From: Candidatus Hydrogenedentota bacterium
Lineage (GTDB): Bacteria; Hydrogenedentota; Hydrogenedentia; Hydrogenedentales; JAGMZX01
Direction: 5' to 3'
Assembly: GCA_029556545.1 (NCBI GenBank)
Contig: JAKQEQ010000181.1
Span: forward strand, 80,841-144,840
DNA: 64,000 bases
Position 1 is the first letter of the stretch; each line of letters starts with the position of its first letter. Positions 13,731 through 51,525 of the stretch are shown here, one piece after another. The notes under the pieces were generated by a model. The model was given only the letters and a program-made list of their open reading frames with translations. It had not been told where the DNA came from and did not search any database. The position numbers and the translations under genes are program-made.

Positions 13731-14474
13731 ATGGTTGACGCGGGCGTTGGGTCGGTACGGCGGTTTTACATCATCAGTTGCCACGTCCTCTGGCGCGAAT
13801 TGTGCCATTTCGCCGCCGTGTCGAGGAACGTCTTCGAATTGAAGTTTCTCGAACAGGGACTCCATAACACGCCGGACGTCCTGCGCACGTCGCTGCAAGC
13901 GGCCATCGACGAGACGCCGGACCGCTGCGAGGCGGTGTTGATCGGCTACGGGTTGTGCAGCAACGGCATTGTGGGCATTGTGGCGCGGGACAAGCCCCTT
14001 GTCGTGATGCGGGGCCACGATTGCATCACGTTTCTTCTCGGATCGAAGGATCGGTATCGCGAATATTTCGATGCCCACCCCGGCACCTACTGGTATAGCC
14101 CCGGCTGGATCGACACGCACACGCAGCCGGGACAGGAACGCTACGAGCGCCTGCGCCGCCAGTACGTCGAGATGTACGGCGAGGACAACGCCGAGTACCT
14201 CATGGAGACCGAGCAAGGCTGGTTCCAGAAGTACAACAACGCCGCCTACGTGGACTTGGGCTTCGGCGATTCGGAGGAGTACCAGCGATACACCCGTGCA
14301 TGCGCCGAATGGCTGCAATGGAACTGCGACATGCTGCAGGGCGACCCGCTCCTCGTGGTCGACTTTCTCGAGGGCCGCTGGGATGAGGAGGACTTCCTCG
14401 TCGTCCCGCCGGGACACGAGATCATCGCGTCGCACGATGAACGCATCATCGCGGCACGGGCGTCTCGCCCGTGA
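13731..14474 (+). CDS. DUF1638 domain protein with repeat-derived C-terminal tail
   Basis: A 247-residue protein of the DUF1638 family, recognised by IISCHVLWRELCHFA near the N-terminus, VLIGYGLCSNGIVGI and LVVMRGHDCITFLLGS. Conserved Cys and His residues suggest a metal or corrinoid role; the family often occurs near corrinoid methyltransferase genes, but its function is not established. ATG 13731 is chosen because GGGAGG precedes it. The last residues, AARASRP plus the stop codon, are encoded by a palindromic element shared with two other genes here, so the native end is probably near HDERIIA. Confidence 0.8.
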   Translation: MVDAGVGSVRRFYIISCHVLWRELCHFAAVSRNVFELKFLEQGLHNTPDVLRTSLQAAIDETPDRCEAVLIGYGLCSNGIVGIVARDKPLVVMRGHDCITFLLGSKDRYREYFDAHPGTYWYSPGWIDTHTQPGQERYERLRRQYVEMYGEDNAEYLMETEQGWFQKYNNAAYVDLGFGDSEEYQRYTRACAEWLQWNCDMLQGDPLLVVDFLEGRWDEEDFLVVPPGHEIIASHDERIIAARASRP

Positions 14475-14513
14475 TTGAATCCGCCTTCGGCGGACATGGG
14501 CAGGATGCCCATG
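14455..14513. repeat. Composite palindromic element (families A and B) at a gene end
   Basis: Family A palindrome CACGGGCGTCTCGCCCGTG (14455-14473) supplies the final codons and stop of the DUF1638 gene. After 21 nt comes family B, CATGGGCAGGATGCCCATG (14495-14513). The same A-then-B order recurs at 17189-17235. Confidence 0.9.
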
Positions 14514-14620
14514 CCACGTCGAAGGCGGCGCGGGCCGCGCTCGCAACCTGTGTTATAATCCGGTGAATGCCCCGGCGGGCGCATATTTGGAGTCTAGCAA
14601 CCGCGAGAGGAGTTGGAACG

Positions 14621-15553
14621 ATGTCATCGCTGACACGAAGAGACTTCTTGCATCAAACGGCGATTACAGCGGGCGCCCTGTCGATGGGCTGGGGCGCGTC
14701 GTTCGCTCAGGAAGCAGGGCCGGCGGATATGGCCATCGCCCGATGGGCTGGCGCAACAGGCGCCGAGGCGCCGCTTGCCGACATGGCCGTGAAACTGACC
14801 GAACAGGCCATTGCGGCGATCGGCGGGATAGGACGCTTCGTGCGCCGGGGCGACGTGGTCTGGGTCAAGCCAAACATTGCTTGGGACCGCACCCCCGAGC
14901 AGGCCGCGAACACGAACCCCGACGTGGTGAAGACGCTGGTGCGGTTGTGCCTCGAAGCAGGGGCGAAGACGGTCAAAGTGGGCGATAACCCTTGCGATCG
15001 CGCGGAAAGCACGTATGTGAAGAGCGGGATCGCGGCCGCGGCGCGTGAAGCCGGGGCGGAAGTCGAGTTTCTCGACCGATCCCGCTTCCGCACCGTCGCC
15101 GTCGGCGGCGACCGGCTCAAGGAAATACCCATCTACCCCGGTTTTCTTGATGCCGATCTCGTGATCAACGTTCCAGTAGCAAAACACCATCGCGCGACCA
15201 CCGTTACCTTGTGCATGAAGAACTACATGGGCGTGGTCGAGGAACGTCGCAAGTTCCATCAGGACCTGCCCGCCACCATCCGCGATATCACGGCGTATAT
15301 GAAGCCGCGGCTTTGCGTGCTCGACGCCTTGCGCGTGCTCACGGGCAACGGCCCGACGGGCGGCGACCTGGCCGATGTGAAGGCCGCGAACCTGATCGCC
15401 GCGGGCGTGGATATTGTCGCGCTCGACGCTTTCGGTTCGGAATTGCTCGGCCATAAGCCGGAGGATATCGGCACGGTGAAGGCCGGATTCGACGCCGGGC
15501 TCGGGCGGATGGACTACCGGAGTCTCGCCCTCAAGGAGTTGGAGGTCGTGTGA
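14621..15553 (+). CDS. DUF362 domain protein with Tat signal
   Basis: A 310-residue protein. The N-terminus carries a twin-arginine signal (LTRRDFLHQTAITAG). The rest is a DUF362 domain: WVKPNIAWDR, TLVRLCLEAGAKTVKVGDNPCD, DLVINVPVAKHH, TLCMKNYMGVVEERR and CVLDALRVLTGNGPTGGD. DUF362 proteins often occur with or fused to ferredoxin domains and are suspected of redox or cofactor roles; the activity is unknown. ATG 14621 has GAGAGGAG upstream. The stop codon overlaps the start of the polyferredoxin gene (GTGA), so the two are translated together and probably work together outside the cytoplasmic membrane. Confidence 0.85.
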   Translation: MSSLTRRDFLHQTAITAGALSMGWGASFAQEAGPADMAIARWAGATGAEAPLADMAVKLTEQAIAAIGGIGRFVRRGDVVWVKPNIAWDRTPEQAANTNPDVVKTLVRLCLEAGAKTVKVGDNPCDRAESTYVKSGIAAAAREAGAEVEFLDRSRFRTVAVGGDRLKEIPIYPGFLDADLVINVPVAKHHRATTVTLCMKNYMGVVEERRKFHQDLPATIRDITAYMKPRLCVLDALRVLTGNGPTGGDLADVKAANLIAAGVDIVALDAFGSELLGHKPEDIGTVKAGFDAGLGRMDYRSLALKELEVV

Positions 15554-17208
15554 GGCTGAAGCGGCCGCGTTCGTGGGTGCAGTGGCTGCGGCGGCTGTGC
15601 CAGGCGCTGTTCCTGGCGCTTTTCTTGTGGTTCGTGCTGATCGCGCGTTTCCGCGCGAGCGAGGACGGGCCGGGTCTCATTCGCTTCTTCTTCGAACTGG
15701 ACCCCCTCGTCGTGGTGGCGACGTTTCTTTCGACCCACACCCTTGTGCGCGGGGCTCTTCTCGCGCTTGCCGTGATCATCGCCACCATGGTGCTCGGGCG
15801 CGTCTTTTGCGGTTGGGTCTGCCCGCTCGGCGCGGTACACGCCCTCGCGAGCGCGTGCCGTCCGCGGCGCAAAGGCAGGAAAGACTTCGAGTCCCGGTCT
15901 CCGTGGCAGCGCGGCAAGTACTTCGCCCTCGTGGCGCTGCTGGTCATGGCGCTTTTCGGCGTGCAGTGGACGGGCATCTTTGACCCCATCCCGCTGCTCT
16001 ACCGCAGCGTGGCCACCGCGGTCCTCCCCGCGACCCAATACGCGGTCCAGGAACCGGCCACCGCAATCTACAAGGCCGACCCGAAAATCGGCGGCTTTCA
16101 CCTCACGTCGATCTCAGAACCGGTTTACGAATTCTCGCGGGACGCGATATTCCGCGTCGAGCGCCAAAGCTTCCTCCAGAGCACGGGCATCGCGTTCCTG
16201 TTCATCGGGATTGTGGCGCTGAATTTCGTGCGCCCGCGCTTCTGGTGCCGCTATGTCTGCCCGCTGGGCGGCCTGCTCGGACTGATCGCGGGGCGGCCCG
16301 TGCTGCGCCTGCACAACGATGAGAGCGCGTGTACGAACTGCGGCAAGTGCAACCTGGCGTGCCCCGCCGCCGCGCAGCCGGATCAGCGCGGCAAATGGCT
16401 GCCCTCCGAGTGCTACGGCTGTTGGAACTGCGTCGCGGCCTGCGAGGGCCACGCCATCGCCTTCAAGTGGGAATCCCCGTTCCGCAAGCCCAACGCGGGC
16501 GCGGTGGACTTCTCGCGCCGCGCCACGCTTGCCGCAGGCGTCACCGGCGTCGCCTCGCTGCTGGCGCTGCGCCTGCCGCCCCCGGCCCGCAACCAGCAGC
16601 CGCTTCCCGCGCTGCTGATCCGCCCGCCGGGCGCGCGCGAGGAACGGGCGTTCCTGCAGCGGTGCATTCAGTGCGGCCTCTGCATGCGCGCGTGCCCGAC
16701 GAATGGGTTGCAGCCCTGCGGGCTCGAAGCGGGCCTCGAAGCGCTGTGGACGCCGAAACTCGTGCCCAAGATCGGCTATTGCCAGTTCAATTGCGCGCTA
16801 TGCGGCCAGGTCTGCCCGACGGAGGCGATCCAGCCGATGCCATTGGTCGAGAAGCAGACACTCAAGATCGGCCTCGCCGTCTTCGACACGTCGCGTTGTC
16901 TGCCGCACAACTACGGGCGCGAGTGCATCGTTTGCGAGGAACACTGCCCGCTACCGAAGAAGGCGATCTACCTCATTAATAAAGACGTTTTGTTGCACGA
17001 CGGCTCGACCAAGCAGATCAAGCAGCCGTTTGTCGATCCGGACCTGTGCATCGGCTGCGGCATATGCGAGTGGTCGTGCGTATACCGCGACCAGGCGGCC
17101 ATCCGCGTCGTCGCCGCCAACGAAGCGCGAAATACCTACAACCAGCCCATCCTGCCGGACTACGGGGGTATGGATAGGTATGCGGTGGCACGGGCGTCCC
17201 GCCCGTGA
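15550..17208 (+). CDS. Membrane polyferredoxin (NapH/MauN-like 4Fe-4S protein)
   Basis: A 552-residue protein starting at the GTG of a GTGA overlap with the DUF362 gene. The N-terminal half has membrane spans (FLALFLWFVLIARF, LLALAVIIATMVLG, YFALVALLVMALFGV, GIAFLFIGIVAL) with the juxtamembrane motifs FCGWVCPLGAVH and CRYVCPLGG, as in NapH. Then come iron-sulfur clusters at C261 (CTNCGKCNLACP), C288 (CYGCWNCVAAC), C372 (CIQCGLCMRACP), C415 (CALCGQVCP), C459 (CIVCEEHCP) and C500 (CIGCGICEWSC). It likely passes electrons across or along the membrane to the exported DUF362 partner. The last residues VARASRP come from a palindromic element shared with other genes. Confidence 0.88.
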   Translation: MRLKRPRSWVQWLRRLCQALFLALFLWFVLIARFRASEDGPGLIRFFFELDPLVVVATFLSTHTLVRGALLALAVIIATMVLGRVFCGWVCPLGAVHALASACRPRRKGRKDFESRSPWQRGKYFALVALLVMALFGVQWTGIFDPIPLLYRSVATAVLPATQYAVQEPATAIYKADPKIGGFHLTSISEPVYEFSRDAIFRVERQSFLQSTGIAFLFIGIVALNFVRPRFWCRYVCPLGGLLGLIAGRPVLRLHNDESACTNCGKCNLACPAAAQPDQRGKWLPSECYGCWNCVAACEGHAIAFKWESPFRKPNAGAVDFSRRATLAAGVTGVASLLALRLPPPARNQQPLPALLIRPPGAREERAFLQRCIQCGLCMRACPTNGLQPCGLEAGLEALWTPKLVPKIGYCQFNCALCGQVCPTEAIQPMPLVEKQTLKIGLAVFDTSRCLPHNYGRECIVCEEHCPLPKKAIYLINKDVLLHDGSTKQIKQPFVDPDLCIGCGICEWSCVYRDQAAIRVVAANEARNTYNQPILPDYGGMDRYAVARASRP

Positions 17209-17235
17209 TTGAGGAACATGGGCAAGATGCCCATG
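17189..17235. repeat. Composite palindromic element (families A and B)
   Basis: Family A CACGGGCGTCCCGCCCGTG (17189-17207) covers the final codons and stop of the polyferredoxin gene. Family B CATGGGCAAGATGCCCATG (17217-17235) follows. The order and orientation match the copy at 14455. Confidence 0.9.
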
Positions 17236-17275
17236 CCACTCCCTCTCTCGGGGAGCGGGAGTTGGAGGGAACGCG

Positions 17276-17313
17276 CCTCGGGGGCGGACGGGTCGGAGCG
17301 TCCGCCCCCGAGG
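17276..17313. terminator. Strong stem-loop between convergent polyferredoxin and dnaK genes
   Basis: A perfect 15-bp stem, CCTCGGGGGCGGACG / CGTCCGCCCCCGAGG, with an 8-nt loop lies between two convergent genes. It lacks a T-tract. It may terminate both transcripts or protect their 3' ends. Confidence 0.5.
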
Positions 17314-17347
17314 ATGATCTATGTTCACCGCCGGTACTTCCGACGGA

Positions 17348-19276
<1,929 letters not shown>

Positions 19277-19727
19277 GATGCATTACCTCCTTCATGCGGC
19301 GTTCGCGGATCGCCGCGATGCTTTTCACGCAGAGAGGGGCAACTCGCATGCCAAGAATAGCGCGCATGCGGTACGCGTGTGGCTGCGGGCGGATTGGATT
19401 TGTAACTGGTTGATAGGACAAGTGTTGTGCACTCAGATTCAGGACACGCGACGAGTGACGACTTTCTTGCAGCGGCGCAGTCGTTTCACAATGCAACGCT
19501 TCAGAATGATTCAATCCGCTGAAGTGTGGGCGGTAAACCCGCGACGGGAGGGGGAGGAACTCAGGTGGCACACGGGGGATTCGATTATGATCGGGAGATC
19601 GATTACGATTACGAAAACGAGTACGAGTACGAGGAAGGGTAGGAGGTGGGGCGTACCGCCCCATGTTTCCTTGATTCTCACCGCAGCCCTCGCCCGCCGG
19701 GAGAGGGAGCATACGGGAGGACGGTTC
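19277..19727. other. Intergenic region between divergent dnaK and ceramidase-like genes
   Basis: About 450 bp with no convincing gene; the long plus-strand frame crossing it is dnaK antisense. No CIRCE inverted repeat is present. It contains a direct-repeat tract of GATTACGA/GAGTACGA units (19578-19640) and a GC-rich segment (19681-19710) resembling the family C palindrome. Promoters for both genes should lie here, but I could not identify them firmly. Confidence 0.5.
19578..19640. repeat. Degenerate GATTACGA-type tandem tract
   Basis: Six-base units GATTAC/GAATAC/GAGTAC repeat imperfectly, giving alternating acidic and Tyr codons (DYDYENEYEYE) in one frame and a Val/Ile/Leu-rich pattern on the other strand. 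No start codon or RBS supports translation. Confidence 0.6.
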
Positions 19728-21101
19728 ATGCGCAGGATACTGACCTTATCGACAGTGGCGCTGCTGCTCTCGAGCGCCGGGATCGGGGGCGAGCTTGCGG
19801 CGGGGGGGGCGAAGGCGGTCATCACGCCAGCCTTGGACCCGCCGCTGATCGGGGTAATGGGCGAAGCGCTGGAAGGGGTCGAGACGGACATCTATGCGCG
19901 GGTGCTGACGTTGTATGACGGCGCGACACGGCTGGTCATCGTCACCTATGACCTGAACTGCCTCGACGTGGCGACGCCGATCCTGCGGGCGCGGTGCCGC
20001 GACGAGTTGGGCATCGATCCGGCGTGCCTCATTCTCCTGGCCACGCACAACCATGCCGCGCCGATTCAGATCGTACCGGGCAATTTCGCTTATGGCCGCC
20101 GTCTCGCGGAGATCATTTTCGGGCTGATCCAGGAGGCCATTGCGAGTGAATCGGGACCGGCGTGGCTTCGTTTTGGCTTCGGGCACGGGTATTTCCTTGT
20201 GAGCGTGGGCAATGCGCCCACGGACTATGAGGTGCAGGTGCTGGAGGTGCGGCGCAACGACGCCCCGTTCGCGGTGCTTTTCAATCACCCGACGCACATC
20301 GTGCAAATCTCGAAGACGAAGATCGACGCGGGGCACGCCGGTTTCGCCGTGGACGCGCTCGAGCGGCGCATGCCGGGCGTCATGGCCATGTACGCCGACG
20401 CCTGCGGCGGGAACCAGTTCACGCGCAAGGGCATGTTCCGTCCGCGCGACGAGGTCGAGGCGCTGGGTAACGAACTGGCGAACGTGGTGTCGGCGGTTCT
20501 TGACAAGCCGCTCGAGGACGTTACCGGCCCGCTACGGGCGACCCTCGATGTGATCCCGCTGCCCCTCGACAAACCGCTGCCTTACGAAGAAGCCAAGAAA
20601 CTCGCCCTGCACTTCCCGACAGGCATCGGGCTTGTTCCGTATCCACATCCGCATCGCGAGTCGAATTGGGTGCGCTCGCTTCTTCGCTATTATGAGGAGG
20701 GCCTGTCCTTCCCGACGAAGACCACCGACATGGTCTGCACCGACGACGCGTTTCTGGTTCCGGAATTGGACGAGGCGCGCGCGTTTCCGTGCCGCTATGA
20801 GGAGACCATCGTGGCGACCATCGGGCCGCTGGTCTTCGTGGCAATGCAGGGCGAGGTCTGCGCGCCTATCGGCGCGCGGATCAAGGATACGTTCCGGCAC
20901 GAGCGGCCCATCATGGTTTTCGGGTACATGGGCGAGCACAATCTCTATATTCCGACCCGTGAAATCGTGCGGCTCAAGGTCTACCAGGCGAAGGTGCTAC
21001 AGATTCAATACGCCAGCCCCGTGCCGTGGTCGCCCAACGTCGAGGACGCGATGGTAACCGCCGTGCGCGGCATGGTCCGCCGCGTGATTGCGTCGCCGTA
21101 A
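19728..21101 (+). CDS. Neutral/alkaline ceramidase-like secreted protein
   Basis: A 457-residue protein with a signal peptide (MRRILTLSTVALLLSSAG). The body matches the N-terminal catalytic domain of neutral ceramidases and related hydrolases: KAVITPALDPPLIGVMGEALEGVETDIYARVLTLYDG, VIVTYDLNCLD, LLATHNHAAP (metal-binding His pair), LFNHPTHIVQ, MYADACGGNQ and ATIGPLVFVAMQGEVCAPIG. Many bacterial members are annotated only as neutral/alkaline non-lysosomal ceramidase-like, and their substrates are unknown. ATG 19728 has GGGAGG 7 nt upstream; the frame open from 18396 is a shadow of dnaK. The gene is followed by the DUF502/transporter pair. Confidence 0.78.
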   Translation: MRRILTLSTVALLLSSAGIGGELAAGGAKAVITPALDPPLIGVMGEALEGVETDIYARVLTLYDGATRLVIVTYDLNCLDVATPILRARCRDELGIDPACLILLATHNHAAPIQIVPGNFAYGRRLAEIIFGLIQEAIASESGPAWLRFGFGHGYFLVSVGNAPTDYEVQVLEVRRNDAPFAVLFNHPTHIVQISKTKIDAGHAGFAVDALERRMPGVMAMYADACGGNQFTRKGMFRPRDEVEALGNELANVVSAVLDKPLEDVTGPLRATLDVIPLPLDKPLPYEEAKKLALHFPTGIGLVPYPHPHRESNWVRSLLRYYEEGLSFPTKTTDMVCTDDAFLVPELDEARAFPCRYEETIVATIGPLVFVAMQGEVCAPIGARIKDTFRHERPIMVFGYMGEHNLYIPTREIVRLKVYQAKVLQIQYASPVPWSPNVEDAMVTAVRGMVRRVIASP

Positions 21102-21210
21102 TGGTGCGGTCAGCGGCGCGCGATTTGATCGGTTTCGCGTCTCCCGCGTTCATCATGCTATGCTGTAGCCGATCCCGTAATCGCGTCCATATGCCTTGGT
21201 TCTCCCGGCC

Positions 21211-21855
21211 ATGAAATCGGAAAACGCACTTCAAAGCATCCGCAAGCGCTTGGTGTCCGGACTGCTCGTCGTCGTGCCAGCGGGCATAACGTTGCTGATT
21301 CTGGCCTTTCTGTACGATGTGACCATCGGCATGATCATGCCCGCCGCGCAAGGGCTCTTGGGGACCATGCCCTATCCGCTAATGGCGCTTTTTTCTCTGC
21401 TGGTATTGCTGTTAACGCTATACGGGGTTGGGACATTGGCGTCTCACGTGGTCGGTCGTAGGCTGATCCATATCGCGGAAAGGATGGTTGACCAGATTCC
21501 CTTTGTGAAGACGGTGTACTCGGTCTCGAAGCAGCTTATCGACCTGTTTCTCAAGCAGGAGTCGAGCAACAGCCAACAAGTCGTGCTTGTTGAATTTCCG
21601 GGGCCCGGGTTGCGGGCGCTGGGGTTCGTCACCGGCACAATCATCGGCCCGGATGAACGCGCGTACTACAAAGTATTCATTCCCACGACACCCAACCCGA
21701 CGACCGGATTTCTGGAACTCGTGCCGGTGGACACGACACCCGTGTTGCGCATCACGATGGAGGAGGCGGTTTCGTTGGTCATGTCCGGTGGACTGCTGGG
21801 GCCGGAGCGTCTGACGGCCCGCCCGCCCGATACGCGAGGTCCGGCTCTCCCATGA
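21211..21855 (+). CDS. DUF502 family membrane protein
   Basis: A 214-residue protein of the DUF502 family. It has two N-terminal membrane spans (RLVSGLLVVVPAGITLLILAFLYD and LMALFSLLVLLLTLYGVGTLASHVVG). The conserved soluble part follows: DQIPFVKTVYSVSKQLIDLF, VVLVEFPGPGLRALGFVTG and VFIPTTPNPTTGFLELVP. The function is not established; membership is clear. The stop overlaps the next gene's start (ATGA), so it is translationally coupled to the ion transporter and may modulate it. The start is ATG 21211; a TTG at 21196 is the alternative. Confidence 0.85.
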   Translation: MKSENALQSIRKRLVSGLLVVVPAGITLLILAFLYDVTIGMIMPAAQGLLGTMPYPLMALFSLLVLLLTLYGVGTLASHVVGRRLIHIAERMVDQIPFVKTVYSVSKQLIDLFLKQESSNSQQVVLVEFPGPGLRALGFVTGTIIGPDERAYYKVFIPTTPNPTTGFLELVPVDTTPVLRITMEEAVSLVMSGGLLGPERLTARPPDTRGPALP

Positions 21856-23120: not shown

Positions 23121-23159
23121 CGCATCTCCGGCGCAACGGCGATTGCGTTGAAAAGGCGA

Positions 23160-24509: not shown

Positions 24510-24679
24510 ATCCCAGGCAGCCGCGTGTTTGCGTGCCGCCTTTCATGGCATAGTAGCACCCGACTTCGAGGGGCATCAAGGCACACCGGTCATTTTCGGA
24601 GCGGTCAGAGGCACAAACGACTGAGACGACAAGAGGGATGGGTCCGAGCCGGCCTTGATCGCAGCGCCCGTAAGGACAT

Positions 24680-24703
24680 GGCCCACGGGCGGAACGCCCG
24701 GGC
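24680..24703. repeat. Diverged family A palindrome
   Basis: GGCCCACGGGCGGAACGCCCG followed by GGCC: an imperfect inverted repeat related to the CACGGGCG/CGCCCGTG element, here in noncoding DNA. Confidence 0.6.
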
Positions 24704-24714
24704 CACGGCAGAGG

Positions 24715-24918
24715 CTAGGAGACGGAAGCTCCAGGACGCACCGTGACGGCGCGCGGCGTCGCACGCCGCACGAGTTTGGCGAGGCGCTTCCAGACCGAGG
24801 CGACAGCGCGCGGCGGCCGCGAGCGCGGGCGCGATGGTGCGGGTTCTTCGCAGTAGCTTGATTTCATGACCTCGAGCATCACCACCACGGTGAGCGGGTC
24901 GAAGCTACCGATATACAT
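24715..24918 (-). CDS. Possible small protein, 67 residues
   Basis: ATG 24918 is preceded by ATAAGGAATGGAAC, giving an AAGGAA ribosome site at suitable distance. The product starts MYIGSFDPLTVVVMLEVMKSS with a short hydrophobic stretch and then becomes strongly basic (SRPRSRPPRAV, WKRLAKLVRR). I do not recognise it. It lies alone downstream of the giant subtilase gene, on the same strand, and could be a chance ORF. Confidence 0.3.
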   Translation of the reverse strand: MYIGSFDPLTVVVMLEVMKSSYCEEPAPSRPRSRPPRAVASVWKRLAKLVRRATPRAVTVRPGASVS

Positions 24919-25117
24919 GTTCCATTCCTTATATGATGCTTGCATGCGACAAACGGGCGCGGGCCCGTGGGCGTTGCCGCCATGAAGGGTTCGTTTCTCC
25001 CAGCACGCCGTTATGCACATCGCCCCTGGCTTGTGCGTCGGAGTTAAATGGCGCTCGGCGCGGCAGGATTGACGCGAATAACACGAAGGGGCGGCTTGCT
25101 TATTCCCGTGGGCCGAT

Positions 25118-31372: not shown

Positions 31373-31452
31373 GTTTGGGGTGACTCGCGGAACTTGGTTC
31401 GACTAACATGAGGCGAAGGCGTGGCAGGGGCGGATTGCTCATGAGGGAAGAA

Positions 31453-31503
31453 CATGGGCAAGATGCCCATGCCACGAGGAAGAGCATGGGCAGGATGCCC
31501 ATG
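31453..31503. repeat. Two tandem copies of the family B palindrome
   Basis: CATGGGCAAGATGCCCATG (31453-31471) and CATGGGCAGGATGCCCATG (31485-31503), both followed by CCACG, sit just upstream of the URO-D-like gene. Confidence 0.9.
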
Positions 31504-31524
31504 CCACGCGGATGGAACTGCACC

Positions 31525-33997: not shown

Positions 33998-34013
33998 CGC
34001 GTCGAAACGTGGT

Positions 34014-35860: not shown

Positions 35861-35883
35861 GCCCGCGCGATCGAGAGGGCGCG

Positions 35884-38647: not shown

Positions 38648-38845
38648 GCGGAAATCTCCTTGTCTTCGCGGCGCGAGGTCCGCCGCGGCGGACACACAAG
38701 CGCCTATGACGATAACACAAAGTGCGCCTGCTTTAATCTCGGCGCGGGCGTCCCGGACGGAATTGCGCTCCCGCGTCTTAATCGGGCACTATGCCGCCAA
38801 CGTGGCGCGCGAAGCCGCAGTGGCGCGTCATTCGTGGAGGAGTCC

Positions 38846-39805: not shown

Positions 39806-39922
39806 GGGGCGCGCCGGCGCGGCACCTTGACGAAGGCTGCGGAAAACCTGTATGAAGTCCGGCGGGCACGGGGGGAAAGCGCAAGGTATTGCCTTGTCGG
39901 ATCGCAAGAGGATGCGTGCAGT

Positions 39923-40381: not shown

Positions 40382-40401
40382 CCGGAAAAAGGAGTGCAGT
40401 C

Positions 40402-41841: not shown

Positions 41842-41844
41842 GCC

Positions 41845-42678
41845 ATGGCCGCGTTTTCCTCGATCGCTCCCTTTTATGACGCGCTCGCCGACAAGGCGGG
41901 GCGGCTCGAACGGGAAGGGCCGGTCTTGCGGCGCGTGCTCGACGCGGCGGCCGGGCGGCGGGTCCTGGACCTTGCCTGCGGCACGGGGCTGCATGCGCTT
42001 TTCCTCGCTGAGGCGGGGGCGGCGGTCACGGCGATCGATGTGAGCGCGGCCATGATCGATTACGCTTGCCGCGTGCGGCCACACCCGAAGATAACGTATC
42101 GCGTGCGCGATATGCGCGATGCCGAGGGCGGCCCTTACGACCTCGCGTTGTGTCTCGGAAACTCGCTATCCCTTCTGGCCGACGAAGACCACCTAAAGGC
42201 GGTATTCGCTCGATTGCGCCTGGTGCTCGCACCGGGCGGTCTGTTCCTCGCGCACGTGCTGAACTACGCCGCCGCGGTCGCGCAGGAGGCGCGACATCGC
42301 GTAGAGCGCGCTGTCGTCGAGGACATGCCGGTCGTCGCTGTGAAGAACCTGGTTCCTGACGGCGCGCACACGTTTCTGAGCCTGAGTTTCTTTTTCGAGA
42401 CGCGTGAGGAAGCGGAGGAAGACCTTCGGTCGGGCACCCTCTCCCCGAGGGAGAGGGTTGGGGTGAGGGTTGAAGACGACGGGCGGGACGCCCGTGCCCC
42501 GTGGACGGGGATTGCCGAGACGGCCGTGCTGCGTAACTGGAGCGTCGAAGACCTCACGCGCGCGGCGCGGCGATACGGTCTTGTTGCCCGCGATATTTTC
42601 GGCGCGTTTGATGGCCGTTCTTACGAACCGGAGACTTCGCCGGACCTCTTGGTATTGTTCGCCGCCGAGACGCGGTGA
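41845..42678 (+). CDS. SAM-dependent class I methyltransferase with in-frame repeat insert
   Basis: A 277-residue methyltransferase. SAM-binding motifs: VLDLACGTGLHALFLAEAGAAVTAIDVSAAMI, then YDLALCLGNSLSLL and LVLAPGGLFLAHVLN. The substrate is unknown. It starts 3 nt after the nrfA stop codon, so it is probably co-transcribed. Between SFFFETREEAEEDL and GIAETAVLRNW an insert of about 25 residues (GTLSPRERVGVRV, then EDDGRDARAPW) is encoded by two adjacent palindromic elements. It would sit in a loop between beta strands of the C-terminal sheet. No frameshift results. Confidence 0.85.
   Translation: MAAFSSIAPFYDALADKAGRLEREGPVLRRVLDAAAGRRVLDLACGTGLHALFLAEAGAAVTAIDVSAAMIDYACRVRPHPKITYRVRDMRDAEGGPYDLALCLGNSLSLLADEDHLKAVFARLRLVLAPGGLFLAHVLNYAAAVAQEARHRVERAVVEDMPVVAVKNLVPDGAHTFLSLSFFFETREEAEEDLRSGTLSPRERVGVRVEDDGRDARAPWTGIAETAVLRNWSVEDLTRAARRYGLVARDIFGAFDGRSYEPETSPDLLVLFAAETR
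42436..42495. repeat. Family C and family A palindromes inserted side by side in the methyltransferase gene
   Basis: Family C (CCCTCTCCCCGAGGGAGAGG with a GGTGAGGG tail, 42436-42470) is followed by a family A core (ACGGGCGGGACGCCCGT, 42479-42495). Both are read through in frame. Confidence 0.88.
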
Positions 42679-42689
42679 ACCACGTCGCT

Positions 42690-43901: not shown

Positions 43902-45019
43902 GAGGCGACTCTCCGATAGACTTCGAGGGTCCTCCGCGCCGTTTCCCGCCATGAGAACCGTTTCGCCTGTTCGCGGCCGAGCGCCCGCATACGGTCCCGC
44001 AACGCCGCGTCGCCGAGTACTTCGCTTATGGTCGCCGCGATAGATTCCGGCGACTCCGGGTCCGCGTAGCGGGCCGCATCGCCGCCCGCCTCGGGCAAGG
44101 CCGCGCGCCGGGTCGTGATCACGGGGCAGCCGCAAGCCATCGCCTCGATCACCGGCAGCCCGAACCCTTCATGAAACGACGGCAGCACGAAGGCGTCCGC
44201 GGCGGCATAGAACGCGGGCAGCGCGGCGTGGGACGGGACGTAGCCCAGCCACGTGACGCGGTCGGCGATGCCCAGCCGCCCAGCAATTGCGGGAACCGGC
44301 TCCGGTTGCCATCCGGCGCGACCGAGGAGCACGAGGCGATGCGGAAGATCGTTGCGCACGCGGGCAAAGGCTTCGAGGAGTCCTGTAACGTTCTTGCGCG
44401 GTTCGATGGCGCCGACGAAAAGGACGAACGGGCCGGACACGCCGAATTCCTCGCGCACTCGGCGCGCGGCCTCCTCGCGCGGCGGCGCGGCGAACGCCTC
44501 GTCCACCGCGCCATAGGTCACGGTGACTTTCGCTTCGGGAACGCCCAGGAGTTCCACGATGTCCCGCTTGCTCGCTTCCGAGCAGGTCAGAACGGCGTCG
44601 GCTTCGCGGGCGAATCGTGGCACGTGCCGCGCGAAGGGCCCCACAATCTTCGGACTGCACCACTGGGGCGCGCGCAGAAACGCCAAGTCGTAGATCGTGA
44701 GCACGCGCCGCGCGCGCCGCGTCGGCGGAAGGAAATAGTTCGTGGCGTGGAATACATCGACCCCGCCAAGCACGGTGTCCACGCGCGGCAACCCCGCCAC
44801 GTTCCAGAGTTGATACAACACCCGCGTCGGCACGGGCAACCGCCGCACCGGACACGCCGCCACGTCGGCGACCGCGCGGAGGGCGCGCAAGCCGGTCGCC
44901 AGACCCGCTAAACGGTCTTCTCCGAGCATCGGCAACAGTGCGCGCAGGAGATAGGCCGTGAAGTGGCCCACGCCCGTTCGATCGCCCGTAAGCGGCGTCA
45001 AGTCCATGCCCACGCGCAT
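43892..45019 (-). CDS. Group-4 (GT-B) glycosyltransferase
   Basis: A 375-residue GT4 enzyme paralogous to its downstream neighbour. MRVGMDLTPLTGDRTGVGHFTAYLLRAL, VFHATNYFLPP, VLTIYDLAFLRAPQW, AVLTCSEASKRDIVE, PFVLFVGAIEPRKNVTGLLEAFA and VTWLGYVPSHAALPAFYAAADAFVLPSFHEGFGLPVIEAMACGCPVITT give the full donor and acceptor domains. It lacks the insert present in the neighbour, which helps define that insert. The two overlap by 10 nt and were probably formed by duplication. AGGGAACC precedes ATG 45019. The likely role is exopolysaccharide or O-antigen assembly. Confidence 0.9.
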   Translation of the reverse strand: MRVGMDLTPLTGDRTGVGHFTAYLLRALLPMLGEDRLAGLATGLRALRAVADVAACPVRRLPVPTRVLYQLWNVAGLPRVDTVLGGVDVFHATNYFLPPTRRARRVLTIYDLAFLRAPQWCSPKIVGPFARHVPRFAREADAVLTCSEASKRDIVELLGVPEAKVTVTYGAVDEAFAAPPREEAARRVREEFGVSGPFVLFVGAIEPRKNVTGLLEAFARVRNDLPHRLVLLGRAGWQPEPVPAIAGRLGIADRVTWLGYVPSHAALPAFYAAADAFVLPSFHEGFGLPVIEAMACGCPVITTRRAALPEAGGDAARYADPESPESIAATISEVLGDAALRDRMRALGREQAKRFSWRETARRTLEVYRRVASCA

Positions 45020-45230
45020 TCTGGTTCCCTAAGGCGGTCCGGCTCAATGAGCTTCAGTGATGCTTCCGACACAATCGATTATGACACGCGTCCAGCACGG
45101 GATGCGAGTCGGCGCATTCTATCCGCGGACCGGCGGGTGGGGCCTGGCCGGAGTATGTCTATGATTATAACTCTTTATATCATAGCGACTTACGTTCCTA
45201 TTTGGAAGTGAAGGCATTGTGGTGACGTTC

Positions 45231-45259
45231 TTGACACGGGCATGATCTTATGTTACACT
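45231..45259 (+). promoter_or_regulatory. Sigma70-type promoter of the hrcA operon
   Basis: TTGACA (45231-45236) and TACACT (45254-45259) with 17-nt spacing. The expected transcription start falls just before or at the beginning of the CIRCE operator. Confidence 0.8.
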
Positions 45260-45267
45260 GCGGTCTG

Positions 45268-45294
45268 TTAGCACTCTTTGTCAATGAGTGCTAA
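45268..45294 (+). promoter_or_regulatory. CIRCE operator (HrcA binding site)
   Basis: A perfect consensus inverted repeat TTAGCACTC-N9-GAGTGCTAA, 8 nt downstream of the -10 box and 15 nt upstream of the hrcA start. HrcA bound here would block transcription of hrcA-grpE-dnaK-dnaJ at normal temperature. Confidence 0.97.
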
Positions 45295-45309
45295 GACGCG
45301 GAGACGGCT

Positions 45310-46365
45310 ATGGCCCCGACGCCCCGAGAATTGACGCAACGCGAGGCGCTGATCCTCCATGCCGTGGTGCAGACGTACGTATCCACGGCGGAGCCGGTCG
45401 GATCGCGGACCATCGTCAAGCGGTTCGACATGGACATCAGCCCGGCGACGGTGCGCAACGTCATGGCGGACCTGGAGGAACGGGCCTACCTACAGCAGTT
45501 GCACACGAGTTCGGGCCGCGTGCCGACGGACAAGGGGTATCGGTATTACGTGGACCATTTGATGGAGGTGCAGGCGCTGACGCAGTCCGAGCGCGACCAC
45601 ATCGAGCAGGACCTGTCGCGGCGTCTGGACGACGCGGACGCGGTGCTGCGGCAGACAAGCCACTTGCTGGCGCTGGTCTCGCACCAGACGGGGGTGGCCG
45701 AGGGGCCGAACGAACATGACGCACGAGTACGCCGGCTCGAATTGCTGCCGGTATCCTCGACGCACGTCGCGTTGCTGATTGTGGATAATTTTTCGCGGGT
45801 GCACACGCTGACGGTGGACATGGGCGAGTCGCTTTCAGACGGCGACATGCTCGGGCTGGTGCGATTCCTGAACGAACAGTTGAGGGACATCTCACTTGCC
45901 GCGCTGGCGGCCATGTTGCGGCAACGGATGCGCGAGTACCTCGAAGAACAGCGCCGTATGGCGGAGCGGGCGCTGCGCCTCTTGCAGCTGCTCCCGGCGC
46001 AGCCGCACGGCCAGTTGTTTCTCGAGGGCGCGACGCAGTTGTTCGAGCAACCGGAGTTTCGCGACGTGGTGCGTGCGCGGGAAGTGCTCGACCTCTTCGA
46101 GGAGCGGCACCGGCTGGCCGAACTGTTGCGGGCGCGCGTCAACGAGGAGAGCGGCCCGGGCGCGTGCGTGCTCATCGGCGCGGAAAGCCGGGAGCAGGGC
46201 ATGGACGAAATCAGCGTGGTGGCGTCGCCGTACCGGATCGGCGATGAAACCGTTGGAATGATAGGCGTACTCGGGCCGCGGCGGATGCCGTATCCGCGGC
46301 TTACGGCGCTGGTGGACTACACGGCGGAGATGGTGGGCAAACTGCTTACGCGGCTCAGTCGCTGA
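45310..46365 (+). CDS. hrcA: Heat-inducible transcription repressor HrcA
   Basis: A 351-residue repressor of full length. The N-terminal winged helix has LTQREALILHAVVQTYVSTAEPVGSRTIVKRFDMDISPATVRNVMADLEERAYLQQLHTSSGRVPTDKGYRYYVD, the HrcA signature. The C-terminal dimerisation part includes ALLIVDNFSRVHTLTVDMGE and EISVVASPYRIGDETVGMIGVLGPRRMPYPRLTALVDYTAEMV. It binds the CIRCE site just upstream and thus represses its own operon; refolding by chaperones normally restores activity. It is the first gene of the operon. Confidence 0.97.
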   Translation: MAPTPRELTQREALILHAVVQTYVSTAEPVGSRTIVKRFDMDISPATVRNVMADLEERAYLQQLHTSSGRVPTDKGYRYYVDHLMEVQALTQSERDHIEQDLSRRLDDADAVLRQTSHLLALVSHQTGVAEGPNEHDARVRRLELLPVSSTHVALLIVDNFSRVHTLTVDMGESLSDGDMLGLVRFLNEQLRDISLAALAAMLRQRMREYLEEQRRMAERALRLLQLLPAQPHGQLFLEGATQLFEQPEFRDVVRAREVLDLFEERHRLAELLRARVNEESGPGACVLIGAESREQGMDEISVVASPYRIGDETVGMIGVLGPRRMPYPRLTALVDYTAEMVGKLLTRLSR

Positions 46366-46374
46366 ACAGGACGT

Positions 46375-46397
46375 GGCATGGGCGTCCCGCCCGCGTG
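46375..46397. repeat. Family A-like palindrome between hrcA and grpE
   Basis: GGCATGGGCGTCCCGCCCGCGTG, a variant of the family A element, starts 9 nt after the hrcA stop codon in the spacer before grpE. Confidence 0.8.
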
Positions 46398-46429
46398 AGA
46401 GACATGGTCATGGTGCGCGATTGGAAGTC

Positions 46430-47086
46430 ATGACAACGAAGAAGACAGAAAAGACGGAACTCGAGAGGAAGTTGGAGGCGGAACTCGCGGCGCGCGAGCA
46501 GCAGCGGCGGGAGGAGCCCTCACCCGAACCCTCACCCGAGCCCTCTCCCTCGGGGAGAGGGAGTGAGGCGCCGTCCGTCGAGGAATTGCTCGATACGGCG
46601 GTCGCGGAACGGGATACCTGGAAGGACCAATGTCTCCGTGCGCGCGCCGACCTTGACAACTATCGCAAGCGCACGGCGCGCGAGATGGAGCGGGTGCGCA
46701 AGACGGCGTCGGAAGACCTGGTCCGCGATCTGTTGCCGGTGATCGACAACCTCGAGCGCGCGCTGGCGCATGCGCCGGACGCGACGGACGGTTTCGTGCA
46801 GGGCGTACAGATGGTACACAAGCAACTGTGCGAGGCGCTGGCGTCGCGAGGCGTGGAGCCGATTCCGTCCCACGGTGAAGCCTTCGATCCGCATGTGCAC
46901 GAGGCGCTGGCGCAACAGCCGTCGGACGAGTTTCCAGCGGACACGGTGATGGAGGAATGGCAGCGCGGCTATCGCATGGGCGAATTGCTGCTGCGCCCGT
47001 CGCGCGTGGTGGTCAGCAGCGGGCCGGCGCGGGACGCGGCGGATGCGACGGCCGAAGCCACGGAAGAACAGCAGAGTGAAACCTAA
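46430..47086 (+). CDS. grpE: Nucleotide exchange factor GrpE
   Basis: A 218-residue cochaperone that releases ADP from DnaK. The helical stalk (VAERDTWKDQCLRARADLDNYRKRTAREMERVRKTASEDLVRDLLPVIDNLERAL) and the beta-wing end (PIPSHGEAFDPHVHEALAQQPSDEFPADTVMEEWQRGYRMGELLLRPSRVVVS) are intact. In the disordered N-terminal part, PSPEPSPEPSPSGRGS is encoded by a family C palindrome. The start is uncertain: ATG 46430 is used because earlier in-frame codons fall in the repeat. It lies between hrcA and dnaK in the CIRCE operon. Confidence 0.95.
   Translation: MTTKKTEKTELERKLEAELAAREQQRREEPSPEPSPEPSPSGRGSEAPSVEELLDTAVAERDTWKDQCLRARADLDNYRKRTAREMERVRKTASEDLVRDLLPVIDNLERALAHAPDATDGFVQGVQMVHKQLCEALASRGVEPIPSHGEAFDPHVHEALAQQPSDEFPADTVMEEWQRGYRMGELLLRPSRVVVSSGPARDAADATAEATEEQQSET
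46517..46567. repeat. Family C palindrome within grpE
   Basis: CCCTCACCCGAA and CCCTCACCCGAG precede the palindrome CCCTCTCCCTCGGGGAGAGG. It is the reverse-oriented relative of the copy in the methyltransferase gene (42436) with one extra CCCTCACCCGA unit. Confidence 0.88.
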
Positions 47087-47131
47087 CGTCCCCGGCGGGA
47101 CGCGGCATAGACGAAGGAGGTCAGAGACGTC

Positions 47132-49096
47132 ATGGGCAAGGTAATCGGCATCGACTTGGGCACCACGAACTCGTGCGTCGCCGTGATGGAAAGCGGCGAG
47201 CCGGTCGTCATCGCGAACGCGGAAGGTTCGCGCACGACGCCGTCCATGGTGGCGTTCACGCGGGACGGGGAGCGGCTCGTCGGCGCAGCGGCGAAACGGC
47301 AGGCGGTCACGAACCCGCAGAACACGGTTTTCTCGATCAAGCGGTTCATGGGCCGCCGTCACTCGGAGGTGGCCGAAGAAGAGAAGATGGTGCCGTACAA
47401 GGTCACGTCCACGCCGTCGGGCGACTGCCAGGTCGAGGTATCGGGCAAGACGTATCGCCCGCCGGAAATTTCGGCGATGATCCTCCAGAAGATGCGGGAG
47501 ACCGCGGAGAGCTACCTCGGGAGCAAGGTCGAGAAGGCGGTTGTCACCGTGCCCGCGTATTTCAACGATGCGCAGCGGCAGGCCACGAAGGACGCGGGCC
47601 GCATCGCGGGCCTCGACGTGTTGCGCATCATCAACGAGCCCACGGCCGCGGCGCTGGCGTATGGTCTGGACCGCAAGAAGGATGAAAAGGTGGCGGTTTA
47701 CGACCTTGGCGGCGGGACGTTCGACATCTCGATCCTCGCCATCGGCGACGACAGCTTCGAGGTGCTCTCGACGAACGGCGATACGCACCTTGGCGGCGAC
47801 AACTTCGATCAGCGGATCATCGACTGGCTCGCGGAGGAGTTCCTGCGCGACAGCGGCATCGATCTGCGCAAGGACCCGATGGCGTTGCAGCGGCTCAAAG
47901 AGGCCGGCGAAAAGGCGAAGTGCGAACTCTCGACGACGCTTTCGACGGACGTGAACCTGCCGTTTGTCACGGCGGACGCCTCGGGGCCGAAACACCTGAA
48001 TTACACGTTGACGCGCGCGAAGCTCGAACAGTTGTGCGACGATCTGCTCCAGCGCACAAAGAATCCGTGTTACCGCGCCATCGAGGACGCGAATGTGCGG
48101 CCTTCGGATATCGACGAGGTAATCCTCGTCGGCGGCATGACGCGCATGCCGGCCGTGGGCGCGATCGTGAAGGAAATCTTCGGCAAGGAACCGCACCGGG
48201 GTGTAAATCCCGACGAGGTGGTCGCGGTCGGCGCGGCGATCCAGGCGGGGGTGCTCGCGGGGGAGGTCAAGGATCTGCTCCTGCTCGACGTGACGCCGCT
48301 GTCGCTCGGCATCGAGACGCTCGGCGGCGTGTGCACGCGCCTGATCGAGCGCAACACGACCATCCCGGTGACCAAGCGCCAGGTCTTCTCGACGGCGGCG
48401 GACAGCCAAACCGCGGTGACCATTCACGTGCTACAGGGCGAACGGGAGATGGCGTCGAATAACCGGACGCTGGGCAGGTTCAACTTGGAGGGCATCCCCC
48501 CCGCGCCGCGCGGCATCCCGCAAATCGAGGTGTCTTTCGACATCGACGCGGACGGCATCCTGCACGTGTCCGCCAAGGACCTCGGCACGGGCAAGGAGCA
48601 GAGAATCCGTATCGAGTCCTCGAGCGGCTTGAACGAGAGCGAAATCCAGAACATGGTGAAGGACGCGGAGCAGCACCAGGAAGAGGACAAGCGGAAGAAG
48701 CGGGAAGTCGAGGTGCGTAATAACGCGGACGCCCTGCTCTACGCCTCGGAGAAGAGCTTGCGCGAGCACGGCGACAAGGTCGGCGAGGAGGAGAAGTCGC
48801 GCGTAAACGCGGCCATCGAGAAACTGCGCAAGACCCTCGAGGGCGGCGACGCCGACGCCATCGAAGCGGACATGAACGCGCTGACCCAGGCGTCGCATAA
48901 GCTCGCCGAGGCGATTTACGCCGACGCGGCGGCGCGGCAACAGGCGGCGGGCGCGGGCGCGGAGACGGGACACGCCGCAGGGCCGGAATTCGTCGACCCG
49001 AGCGGCGGCGACGGCGGAAGAAAGGCGTCGGGGAACGACGCGGTTGACGCGGATTTCACGGTCGTGGACGACGACGATAAGAACAAGAAGGGCTGA
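47132..49096 (+). CDS. dnaK: Hsp70 chaperone DnaK, heat-shock operon copy
   Basis: A full-length 654-residue Dna[112 protein letters not shown] and the C-terminal [12 protein letters not shown] are all present. The RBS GGAGG lies 10 nt upstream of ATG 47132. As the third gene of the CIRCE operon it should be heat-induced and work with the adjacent GrpE and DnaJ. A second dnaK without cochaperones lies at 17348. Confidence 0.98.
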
Positions 49097-49142
49097 TTAG
49101 ACGAACACGTCCGATTCAGGTTGAGAATGGATTTTCTTGACT

Positions 49143-50255
49143 ATGCCGCAACGCGATCCATATGAGGTGCTTGGCGTCTCGCGGGAAGCCTCGCAGGAGG
49201 AAATCCGGAAGGCGTACCTCAAGCTCGCGCACAAGTACCATCCGGACAAGACCGGCGGGGACAAGCAGGCCGAGGAAAAGCTCAAGGAGATAAACGCGGC
49301 CTACGACATCCTGAAGAACCCGGAGAAGCGCGCAAAGTACGACCGTTTCGGCACGGCGGACGGCCAGCCGTTCACCGGCGGCTTCGAGGGCTTCGGCGGT
49401 TTCGGCGGGGGCGAATCGCCTTTCGACGACTTCTTCGACATGCTGTTCGGAAAGGGCGGCCGGCGCGGCGGCGCACCCCGGCCCCAGCAGGGCAACGACC
49501 TCGAACTGCGCCTGAACGTCTCGCTGAAGGAGGCGGCCGCGGGCGTCAAGAAGACGGTCCGCTTTTCGCGCATGGAGAATTGCGACGAATGCCGGGGCAC
49601 GGGCGCGGCCGCCGGGTCGCGCCCCGAGGCGTGTTCGCAGTGCCAGGGGACCGGTCAGGTCCGCGTGGCCCACGGGTTCTTCAGCGTCTCGCGCACGTGC
49701 CCGCGCTGCGGCGGGGCGGGCAGCGTCATCGGGAAACCGTGCCGGCGCTGCAGCGGCAAGGCGCGCGTCAAGGTCAGCCGCGAGATCAGCGTGGACGTGC
49801 CGGCGGGCGTGGACACCGGGTCGCGCCTGCGCATCCAGGGCGAAGGCGAACCGGGTTTGAACGGCGGCCCGCGCGGCGACTTGTACATCTACATGGAGGT
49901 CGCGCCGCACCCGGTGTTTCGCCGCGAAGGCGCGAACATCTACTGCGAAGCGCCCATCACGATTACCCAGGCGGCGCTCGGGGCCGCCATCCGGGTGCCG
50001 ACGCTGGAGGGCGAGGCGGAGTTGCGCATCCCGGCCGGCACGCAGTCCGGAACCAACCTGCGCCTGCGGGGACACGGCCTGCCGGACCTGCGCGGCTACC
50101 AGCACGGCGACCAGATCGTGCGCGTGGTCATCGAGACGCCCAGCAAGATCAGCCGCCGCCAGCGTGAGTTGCTCGAGGAACTCGAGGCCCTCTCGAACCC
50201 CAAGAACTACCCGCAACAGGCGGCATTCAACGAGAAGACCCGGCAGTATTCGTGA
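49143..50255 (+). CDS. dnaJ: Hsp40 cochaperone DnaJ
   Basis: A 370-residue type I DnaJ. The J-domain (DPYEVLGVSREASQEEIRKAYLKLAHKYHPDKTGGDK) contains HPD. A Gly/Phe-rich segment (GGFEGFGGFGGGESPFDDFF) follows. The zinc-finger domain has four repeats: CDECRGTG, CSQCQGTG, CPRCGGAG and CRRCSGKA; the last deviates from CxxCxGxG. The C-terminal substrate-binding domains end in KTRQYS. It stimulates DnaK ATPase and delivers substrates. ATG 49143 has no strong RBS, and the frame also holds a TTG at 49137. A family A palindrome begins 3 nt after its stop codon. Confidence 0.96.
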   Translation: MPQRDPYEVLGVSREASQEEIRKAYLKLAHKYHPDKTGGDKQAEEKLKEINAAYDILKNPEKRAKYDRFGTADGQPFTGGFEGFGGFGGGESPFDDFFDMLFGKGGRRGGAPRPQQGNDLELRLNVSLKEAAAGVKKTVRFSRMENCDECRGTGAAAGSRPEACSQCQGTGQVRVAHGFFSVSRTCPRCGGAGSVIGKPCRRCSGKARVKVSREISVDVPAGVDTGSRLRIQGEGEPGLNGGPRGDLYIYMEVAPHPVFRREGANIYCEAPITITQAALGAAIRVPTLEGEAELRIPAGTQSGTNLRLRGHGLPDLRGYQHGDQIVRVVIETPSKISRRQRELLEELEALSNPKNYPQQAAFNEKTRQYS

Positions 50256-50256
50256 A

Positions 50257-51525
50257 TCACGGGCGGGACGCCCGTGCCACCCACCGCAACGTGTCCAGGA
50301 TGATGGCGGCGGCCTCGGGGATCGGGTCGCTCAGGCGCGGCAGGAATAGGGTGCGGCGCTGCGCCAGTTCCGCGTTCGGGAAGTCGCCCTGCCGGTACCC
50401 GCGATAACCCTCGCTCGCGCACACGGGCCCGCGGTTGCGCGTGAAGATATCGAATCCCTTCGCGAACAGGGGCAGGTCATGCAGGTTCGGATAAGGCGAC
50501 AGGGTTGCTTGCAGGCCGCGCGCGTTCAGCGCCGCGACATACGCCTCCGTGGGCACGCCCATCACGCCCGGCTCATGGATGACCGGGAAACCGTAGAAGC
50601 CGCCGCGCTCGACGCCCTCATACACTTTCACAGGCCGCAGGCCGGGGATTGGTGAAAGCCCGGCTTCGACCGATTCGATGAATTCGCGGCGGCGGTGGTT
50701 CAGTTCCGGGAGCTTGTCGAGTTGCGCGGCGGCGATGCCGATGCCGAGCGGATGGGCGCGGAACTTCATGCCTAACCCGAGTGGCTGATGTTCCGCGTAG
50801 CGCGTGCTGACGAGGTCGATCCCGGCGATACGGTTCACCTGCCCGACGAGACAGGCCCGCTCGAACAGGTCCGTATCGTCCGTGGTGAGGACGCCCCCCT
50901 CCCCCGCGCTCACGGCCTTCGATCCTTGCAGGCTCCAGCACCCGGCCTTGCCCATGCCGCCGCACATCCGGCCTCGGTACCGCGCGCCGTGCGCGTGGGA
51001 GCAGTCCTCGATGACGGGAATGCCGGTCTCCTCGCCGATGCGAAGGAGGGCGTCCATGTCGCACACGTTGCCCCACAGATGCACCGCGCAAATACAGCGG
51101 GTACGGTCGGTAATCTTGGCGCGCGCGTCCTTGGGGTCGATCATCAAGCTATCCGGGTCCACGTCGCAGAAGACGGGCCGCGCCCCGAGCAGCAGCGCGG
51201 GCGCGATGGTGCATATCCACGTATTGACGGGGCAGATCACCTCGTCGCCGGGCCCGACGCCGAGCCCGAAATAGGCGGAGTACAATGCGGACGTGCCGTT
51301 CATCACCGTCAGCGCATAGCGCGATCCTATCCAGTCGCGCCAGCGATCCTCGAACGCGCGCACCACGGGCGTCCCCCCCGAAAGCTCGTTGCGCGCGGTC
51401 ATCTCCGCGACGATGGCGACTTCTTCGTCCGTAATCTGACGCCAGCGGTCCAACTCGGGCAAGGCCGCGCCCGCGGTCTGCACAAACGCGCGCGGCTTGA
51501 AGGGATCATACTTGTCGTGCGGCAT
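50257..51525 (-). CDS. DegT/DnrJ/EryC1/StrS family PLP aminotransferase
   Basis: A 422-residue sugar-aminotransferase-type enzyme. GTPVVRAFEDRWRDWIGSRYALTVMNGTSALYSAYFGLGVGPGDEVICPVNTWICTIAPALLLGARPVFCDVD is the fold-type I N-terminus. EDCSHAHGARYRGRMCGGMGKAGCWSLQGSKAVSAGEGG gives the PLP Lys203. Such enzymes aminate keto-sugars for surface glycans or antibiotics; some relatives act as dehydratases. The C-terminal WVARASRP is supplied by a family A palindrome. It lies last in a long minus-strand run after thiL and nnrD. Confidence 0.88.
   Translation of the reverse strand: MPHDKYDPFKPRAFVQTAGAALPELDRWRQITDEEVAIVAEMTARNELSGGTPVVRAFEDRWRDWIGSRYALTVMNGTSALYSAYFGLGVGPGDEVICPVNTWICTIAPALLLGARPVFCDVDPDSLMIDPKDARAKITDRTRCICAVHLWGNVCDMDALLRIGEETGIPVIEDCSHAHGARYRGRMCGGMGKAGCWSLQGSKAVSAGEGGVLTTDDTDLFERACLVGQVNRIAGIDLVSTRYAEHQPLGLGMKFRAHPLGIGIAAAQLDKLPELNHRRREFIESVEAGLSPIPGLRPVKVYEGVERGGFYGFPVIHEPGVMGVPTEAYVAALNARGLQATLSPYPNLHDLPLFAKGFDIFTRNRGPVCASEGYRGYRQGDFPNAELAQRRTLFLPRLSDPIPEAAAIILDTLRWVARASRP
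50258..50276. repeat. Family A palindrome between convergent dnaJ and DegT genes
   Basis: CACGGGCGGGACGCCCGTG lies 3 nt after the dnaJ stop codon and encodes, on the minus strand, the last residues (ARASRP) of the DegT aminotransferase. Confidence 0.92.

What the first reader, a model, noticed from the sequence alone, without database searches (positions are those of the whole stretch)
14455..50276. One palindrome family supplies the same C-terminal tail to three unrelated proteins
The sequence shows the DUF1638 protein (14474), the membrane polyferredoxin (17208) and the DegT aminotransferase (50257, minus strand) all ending in ARASRP plus stop. In each case the codons and TGA are the palindrome CACGGGCG-TCT/CCC-CGCCCGTG. 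Further copies sit at 46375, 63170 and 24680. This looks like a short mobile or amplifying element that inserts near stop codons and replaces gene ends. It is read in a frame that ends within the element, so insertion always gives a tidy stop. If selected, this is a standard tail module; if not, it shows strong insertion bias.
Basis: partly seen in the sequence, partly recalled or inferred. Interest (0 to 1): 0.72.

Follow-up and report, generated by a model that had tools for sequence, protein, structure and literature searches.

The report
REP palindromes supply three stop codons
A common kind of tiny mobile DNA palindrome (a REP element) has landed in the ends of three unrelated genes and happens to give each the same last six amino acids and stop codon; this is a by-product of how such elements scatter, not a designed protein tail.

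Summary
Three genes in the window (DUF1638, polyferredoxin, DegT aminotransferase) end ...ARASRP* inside copies of one palindrome. The palindrome is a REP element: foot GTGG, core GGCAYGGGC-NNNNN-GCCCRTG, often paired with an inverted partner (REPIN/BIME). The genome holds 57 exact and 146 general copies; the reversed-pattern control gives 0. In a same-genus genome and others of the order, REP-associated tyrosine transposase (RAYT) genes lie between copies of this same REP. A REPIN in the methionine synthase gene is missing from five relatives, so the element moves. Sites are enriched near stop codons: 38 of 102, against 3.8 for random placement. Usually the native stop lies 2-18 nt before the element. 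Only 6 of 55 ORF-read copies use the frame that ends in TGA, no more than the 1/6 expected by chance. Another 29 of 102 sites sit inside called ORFs and are read through. Orthologues lack the tail and have variable ends. So the shared tail is a by-product of REP spread, neither a selected module nor an element that "always" makes a tidy stop. REPs supplying stop codons were reported before (PMC3733652). Verdict: a new member of a known kind.

The parts
14451..14473 (+). REP unit (foot degenerate, GCGG...); supplies ARASRP and the TGA at 14472-14474 to the DUF1638 gene
14495..14517 (-). inverted partner unit (GTGGCATGGGCATCCTGCCCATG); with 14451 forms a REPIN of 67 bp
   Evidence: RNA fold -46.5 kcal/mol, z -6.0
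17185..17207 (+). REP unit GTGGCACGGGCGTCCCGCCCGTG; supplies VARASRP and the TGA at 17206-17208 to the polyferredoxin gene
17217..17239 (-). inverted partner unit (GTGGCATGGGCATCTTGCCCATG); REPIN 17185-17239
   Evidence: RNA fold -37.9 kcal/mol, z -4.7
50258..50280 (-). single REP unit; supplies VARASRP and the TGA (50257-50259) to the DegT aminotransferase gene; the convergent + gene stops at 50255
46373..46395 (+). REP unit 7 nt after the hrcA stop; no effect on the protein
24684..24706 (-). diverged REP unit, intergenic
31423..31507 (.). cluster of three units (one degenerate, two AT-type) in an intergenic gap
42478..42500 (-). diverged REP unit inside ORF 41845-42678, read through as DGRDARAP
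63144..63192 (.). decayed REPIN just after the stop of the minus-strand gene 63193-63957
13710..14474 (+). DUF1638 (PF07796) gene, end encoded by REP
15577..17208 (+). membrane polyferredoxin (NapH/NapG-like 4Fe-4S) gene, end encoded by REP
50257..51525 (-). DegT/DnrJ/EryC1 aminotransferase gene, end encoded by REP

Best explanation
The palindrome is a REP element of the tagged kind: foot GTGG and a stem-loop GGCAYGGGC-NNNNN-GCCCRTG, usually in inverted pairs (REPIN/BIME), spread within genomes of this lineage by a REP-associated tyrosine transposase (RAYT/TnpA-REP). RAYT acts on the folded single strand next to the tag (inferred from PMC8266576, not shown here). Copies persist where they do least harm, mainly just downstream of stop codons and also in tolerant stretches of proteins. 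When a copy lands in the last codons of a gene in forward frame 0, the unit reads GTG-GCA-CGG-GCG-TCN-CGC-CCG-TGA, so the gene gains VARASRP and a stop. The three identical tails are three such landings. Shown here: copy number, tag, pairing, a moved copy, RAYT association in relatives, gene-end enrichment, frame usage and tail-less orthologues. Inferred: the transposition chemistry, and purifying selection as the cause of the placement.
For: 57 exact and 146 general copies in G000, 0 control. GTGG foot in 113 of 128 units. 42 of 102 sites are one convergent pair (counted). RAYTs lie between or beside the same REPs in G001 (same genus), G052, G032 and G029. A 57-nt in-frame REPIN in the G000 methionine synthase gene is absent from five relatives, including G001 at 85% identity. 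38 of 102 sites lie at a gene end against a mean of 3.8 at random. Frame 0 is used by 6 of 55 ORF-read units. No orthologue of the three proteins carries the tail. An independent genome, G016, has VARASRP*/VARTSRP* ends on two unrelated genes. Literature: REP termini often give stop codons to flanking ORFs and O. terrae GTAG-20 REPs carry GTGG (PMC3733652).
Against: The assembly of G000 has no RAYT flanked by this REP; its closest homologue (41%, C9:25921-26442) has no REP beside it. The assembly is 96% complete and the G001 gene lies near a contig end, so a gap may hide it, but that is not shown. Downstream synteny with G001 is broken at all three tailed genes, so these three sites have no clean empty-site counterpart. 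Gene calls come from my own codon-based caller.
Confidence: 0.93

Rival explanations
1. The ARASRP tail is a selected C-terminal module (for example a stability or localisation signal) and the palindrome is kept for its coding sense.
For: Identical peptide on three unrelated proteins in one window, six in the sampled genome and two more in G016.
Against: The frame is not preferred (6 of 55, chance 1/6). The host proteins share no function: DUF1638, polyferredoxin, aminotransferase, RlmN-like radical SAM, NuoF-like, glycosyltransferases, DUF4838. Relatives of the three window proteins lack the tail.
Confidence: 0.02
2. The copies near stop codons are kept because the hairpin in the 3' end of the mRNA works as RNA: stabilising the transcript, stalling ribosomes at the stop (E. 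coli REPs within 15 nt of the stop lower translation) or ending transcription.
For: Stops concentrate 2-18 nt before the foot. REPINs fold very stably as RNA, z -4.7 to -6.0. In E. [quoted passage not shown]).
Against: No run of T follows the units at the window sites examined, so they do not look like intrinsic terminators. 28% of sites are inside called ORFs, and 10 of 73 extragenic sites are in divergent gaps. Placement alone is explained by avoiding promoters and coding sequence. Not exclusive of the main explanation: it may be a secondary effect.
Confidence: 0.3
3. Chance: GC-rich palindromes at gene ends in a GC-rich genome.
For: The genome is GC-rich and short palindromes occur by chance (mean 2.8 hits with up to 3 mismatches in shuffles).
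Against: 146 copies against 0 for the reversed pattern genome-wide, a conserved foot, inverted pairing and RAYT association.
Confidence: 0.005

Closest known systems
GTAG-tagged REPs of Di Nocera et al. 2013 (PMC3733652), in particular the GTGG-tagged GTAG-20 family of Opitutus terrae
   Same: Short stem-loop with a GTRG-like tag at one end, inverted dimers, high copy number, close to 3' ends of ORFs, some inside ORFs, termini that supply stop codons.
   Different: The stem and loop sequence could not be compared (figure not held). There the stop comes from the TAG of the tag; here the tag is GTGG and the stop is TGA at the other end of the unit.
REPINs of Bertels and Rainey 2011 (PMC3116915)
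   Same: Two inverted REPs with a spacer form one hairpin; clusters beside RAYT genes.
   Different: Shorter unit (about 52-67 bp); more copies inside ORFs than the extragenic description.
REPtrons: RAYT/TnpA-REP with cognate REP (PMC2817692, PMC8266576)
   Same: In G001, G052, G032 and G029 a RAYT is flanked by copies of this REP type.
   Different: The pairing was not found in the assembly of G000 itself. Chemistry not tested. Tag GTGG instead of GTAG.
Rickettsia palindromic elements (RPE), cited in PMC3733652
   Same: Palindromic units inserted in frame within genes that likely encode functional proteins.
   Different: No sequence relation tested; the units here carry a GTGG tag and are tied to RAYTs.

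Membership tests
REP (repetitive extragenic palindrome), GTAG-like tagged | 20-40 nt palindrome in high copy number | tested here: met
   57 exact and 146 general copies, control 0
REP (repetitive extragenic palindrome), GTAG-like tagged | conserved GTRG-type tetranucleotide at the 5' foot | tested here: met
   GTGG in 113 of 128 units; GTGG is on record for O. terrae GTAG-20
REP (repetitive extragenic palindrome), GTAG-like tagged | mainly outside genes | tested here: met
   73 of 102 sites extragenic, while 81% of random positions are intragenic
REPIN/BIME | two REPs in inverted orientation with a short spacer, forming one hairpin | tested here: met
   42 of 102 sites are one convergent pair; folds
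REPIN/BIME | mobility within the genome | tested here: met
   methionine synthase insertion absent from five relatives; only one clean site examined
REPtron (RAYT plus cognate REP in one genome) | RAYT gene flanked by the same REP, in this genome | tested here: not met
   closest homologue in G000 is 41% identical and has no REP beside it
REPtron (RAYT plus cognate REP in one genome) | RAYT gene flanked by the same REP, in relatives | tested here: met
   G001, G052, G032, G029
REPtron (RAYT plus cognate REP in one genome) | RAYT cleaves and joins the single-stranded REP next to the tag | not testable with these tools
   needs purified protein

The most novel reading that the evidence does not exclude
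REPINs of this lineage act as a peptide-insertion system: about a quarter of the sampled sites are read through inside called ORFs, even in core enzymes (methionine synthase, MeaB-mutase fusion, a TPP enzyme), with the GTGVPPV and HGQDAHAT frames commonest, and a part of these insertions, like the gene-end copies, is kept because it changes expression or the protein.
Probability: 0.1. Interest if true: 0.5.

Novelty: new member of a known kind. Interest (0 to 1): 0.22.

Why it matters
It shows how a neutral repeat can make unrelated proteins end alike, which could mislead searches for shared C-terminal signals. It adds a REP sequence family with RAYT partners in an uncultured lineage, and one clean, datable insertion inside methionine synthase. 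The biology itself (REPs close to stops, stops supplied by REPs, REPs inside ORFs) was already described.

Tried and rejected
One request failed for region length and one for query length. A cognate RAYT in G000 was sought with Pfam, with the NCBIfam model and with the G001 protein: five Y1/RAYT-like genes, none beside this REP; one (L035) is flanked by a different REP, GTTCCCAAGTACAACTTGGGAAC. Empty sites at the three tailed genes: conservation with G001 stops at or just before the element because downstream synteny is lost, so methionine synthase was used instead; the MeaB-mutase site could not be aligned cleanly. No Rfam family matches the window. Terminator reading rejected: no T run after the units examined, and none of the terminator-like sites found falls on them. 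A bias of the element towards the stop side within one-direction gaps is only suggestive (33 against 19, p = 0.07).

Full report
What is there. The window holds exact copies of CACGGGCG-NNN-CGCCCGTG at 14455-14473, 17189-17207 and 50258-50276. The DUF1638 gene, the polyferredoxin gene and, on the minus strand, the DegT aminotransferase gene end in them as ARASRP*.

The unit and its partner. With neighbouring bases the unit is GTGG-CAYGGGC-NNNNN-GCCCRTG, and it is often followed, after a short spacer, by an inverted second unit, as in 17185-17239. 42 of 102 sampled sites are exactly one such convergent pair (counted). The foot is GTGG in 113 of 128 units. The pairs fold strongly (z -4.7 and -6.0). 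The genome has 57 exact and 146 general copies, while the reversed pattern has none. The same-genus genome G001 has 62, and other members of the order have from 0 to 54. One exact composite form occurs in named genomes recorded as Lentisphaerae, Sumerlaeota, Kiritimatiellae, Opitutia, PVC and Acidobacteria.

It moves. In the G000 gene for methionine synthase (L130) a 57-nt REPIN adds 19 residues in frame (...REVARGTGVPPVSEDHGQDAHATWDGRP...). Five relatives, G001 at 85% identity among them, lack it at that position. RAYT genes in G001, G052, G032 and G029 lie between or beside copies of this REP type. G000 itself has no RAYT so placed; its closest homologue is 41% identical and has no REP beside it. 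It may be lost or lie in a gap of the draft assembly; that is open.

Where it sits. I called genes with a codon-based caller that gives a clean tiling of the window and classified 102 sites with 156 units. 38 sites have a stop codon within -30 to +20 nt of an element edge, against a mean of 3.8 and a maximum of 10 in 500 random placements. In the usual case the stop lies 2-18 nt before the foot and the protein is untouched. 29 sites lie inside called ORFs and are read through. Of 55 units read by an ORF, 6 are in the forward frame that ends in TGA (VARASRP*), 49 in the other five frames; chance would give 1/6, so there is no excess of tidy stops (p = 0.36). Of 57 exact units, 6 supply the stop. 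In the independent genome G016 two of seven ORF-read units do so, on genes of other families; in G047 no unit is read by an ORF.

Orthologues. Close and distant relatives of the three proteins end without ARASRP, at variable lengths and with variable sequence; in G001 the ends are AVPDGAEADKRAG*, GGAYG* and NACALPGSCPPPPS*. Conservation with G001 stops at or just before the element, but downstream synteny is lost as well, so these sites do not give a clean footprint. The tail sits on ends that are free to vary.

Mechanism. Most likely RAYT spreads the REPIN through single-stranded DNA, using the tag beside the hairpin, as shown in vitro for other RAYTs (PMC8266576); this step is inferred. Selection then removes harmful copies, so that those in promoters and most coding sequence go and those just behind stop codons remain; also inferred. 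A copy that falls into the last codons in frame 0 gives the shared tail. A role of the hairpin in mRNA is possible as an added effect: E. coli REPs within 15 nt of the stop are reported to lower translation (PMC12306157).

What is known. Di Nocera et al. (PMC3733652) report tagged REPs in the PVC superphylum and elsewhere, GTGG tags in O. terrae, positions within 20 bp of ORF ends, REPs inside ORFs, and REP termini that often provide the stop codon. REPINs and RAYT pairing are known from PMC3116915 and PMC2817692. What differs here is the sequence family and that the stop is TGA at the far side of the unit, not the TAG of the tag. I file it as a REP/REPIN family, new member of a known kind; the claim of a full REP-RAYT pair within this genome is not met.

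Noticed in passing
L130 (G000:C96), aa 133-151 of the methionine synthase; L008, L125 and others: 29 of 102 REP sites lie inside called ORFs and are read through, in core enzymes too, giving GTGVPPV-, HGQDAHAT- or WHGRPAR-type peptides. The methionine synthase case is confirmed by five relatives; the others rest on gene calls.
   Followed up: partly
L075 (G001:C80), 1-1173 minus strand: A RAYT gene and its flanking REP arrays are read in one continuous open frame with neighbouring sequence, near the contig end.
   Followed up: partly
L035 (G000:C36:37864-41094): A second REP family, GTTCCCAAGTACAACTTGGGAAC, flanks another RAYT of the same genome; similar repeats flank RAYTs in G029 and G047 (L063, L077, L078).
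   Followed up: no
window 31423-31507: Three units in a row, two of them direct copies of the AT-type unit, in a gap of about 165 bp.
   Followed up: no
L053-L061: The same composite 23 + 23 nt REPIN occurs exactly in genomes recorded under several phyla, which suggests transfer or a shared RAYT type.
   Followed up: no
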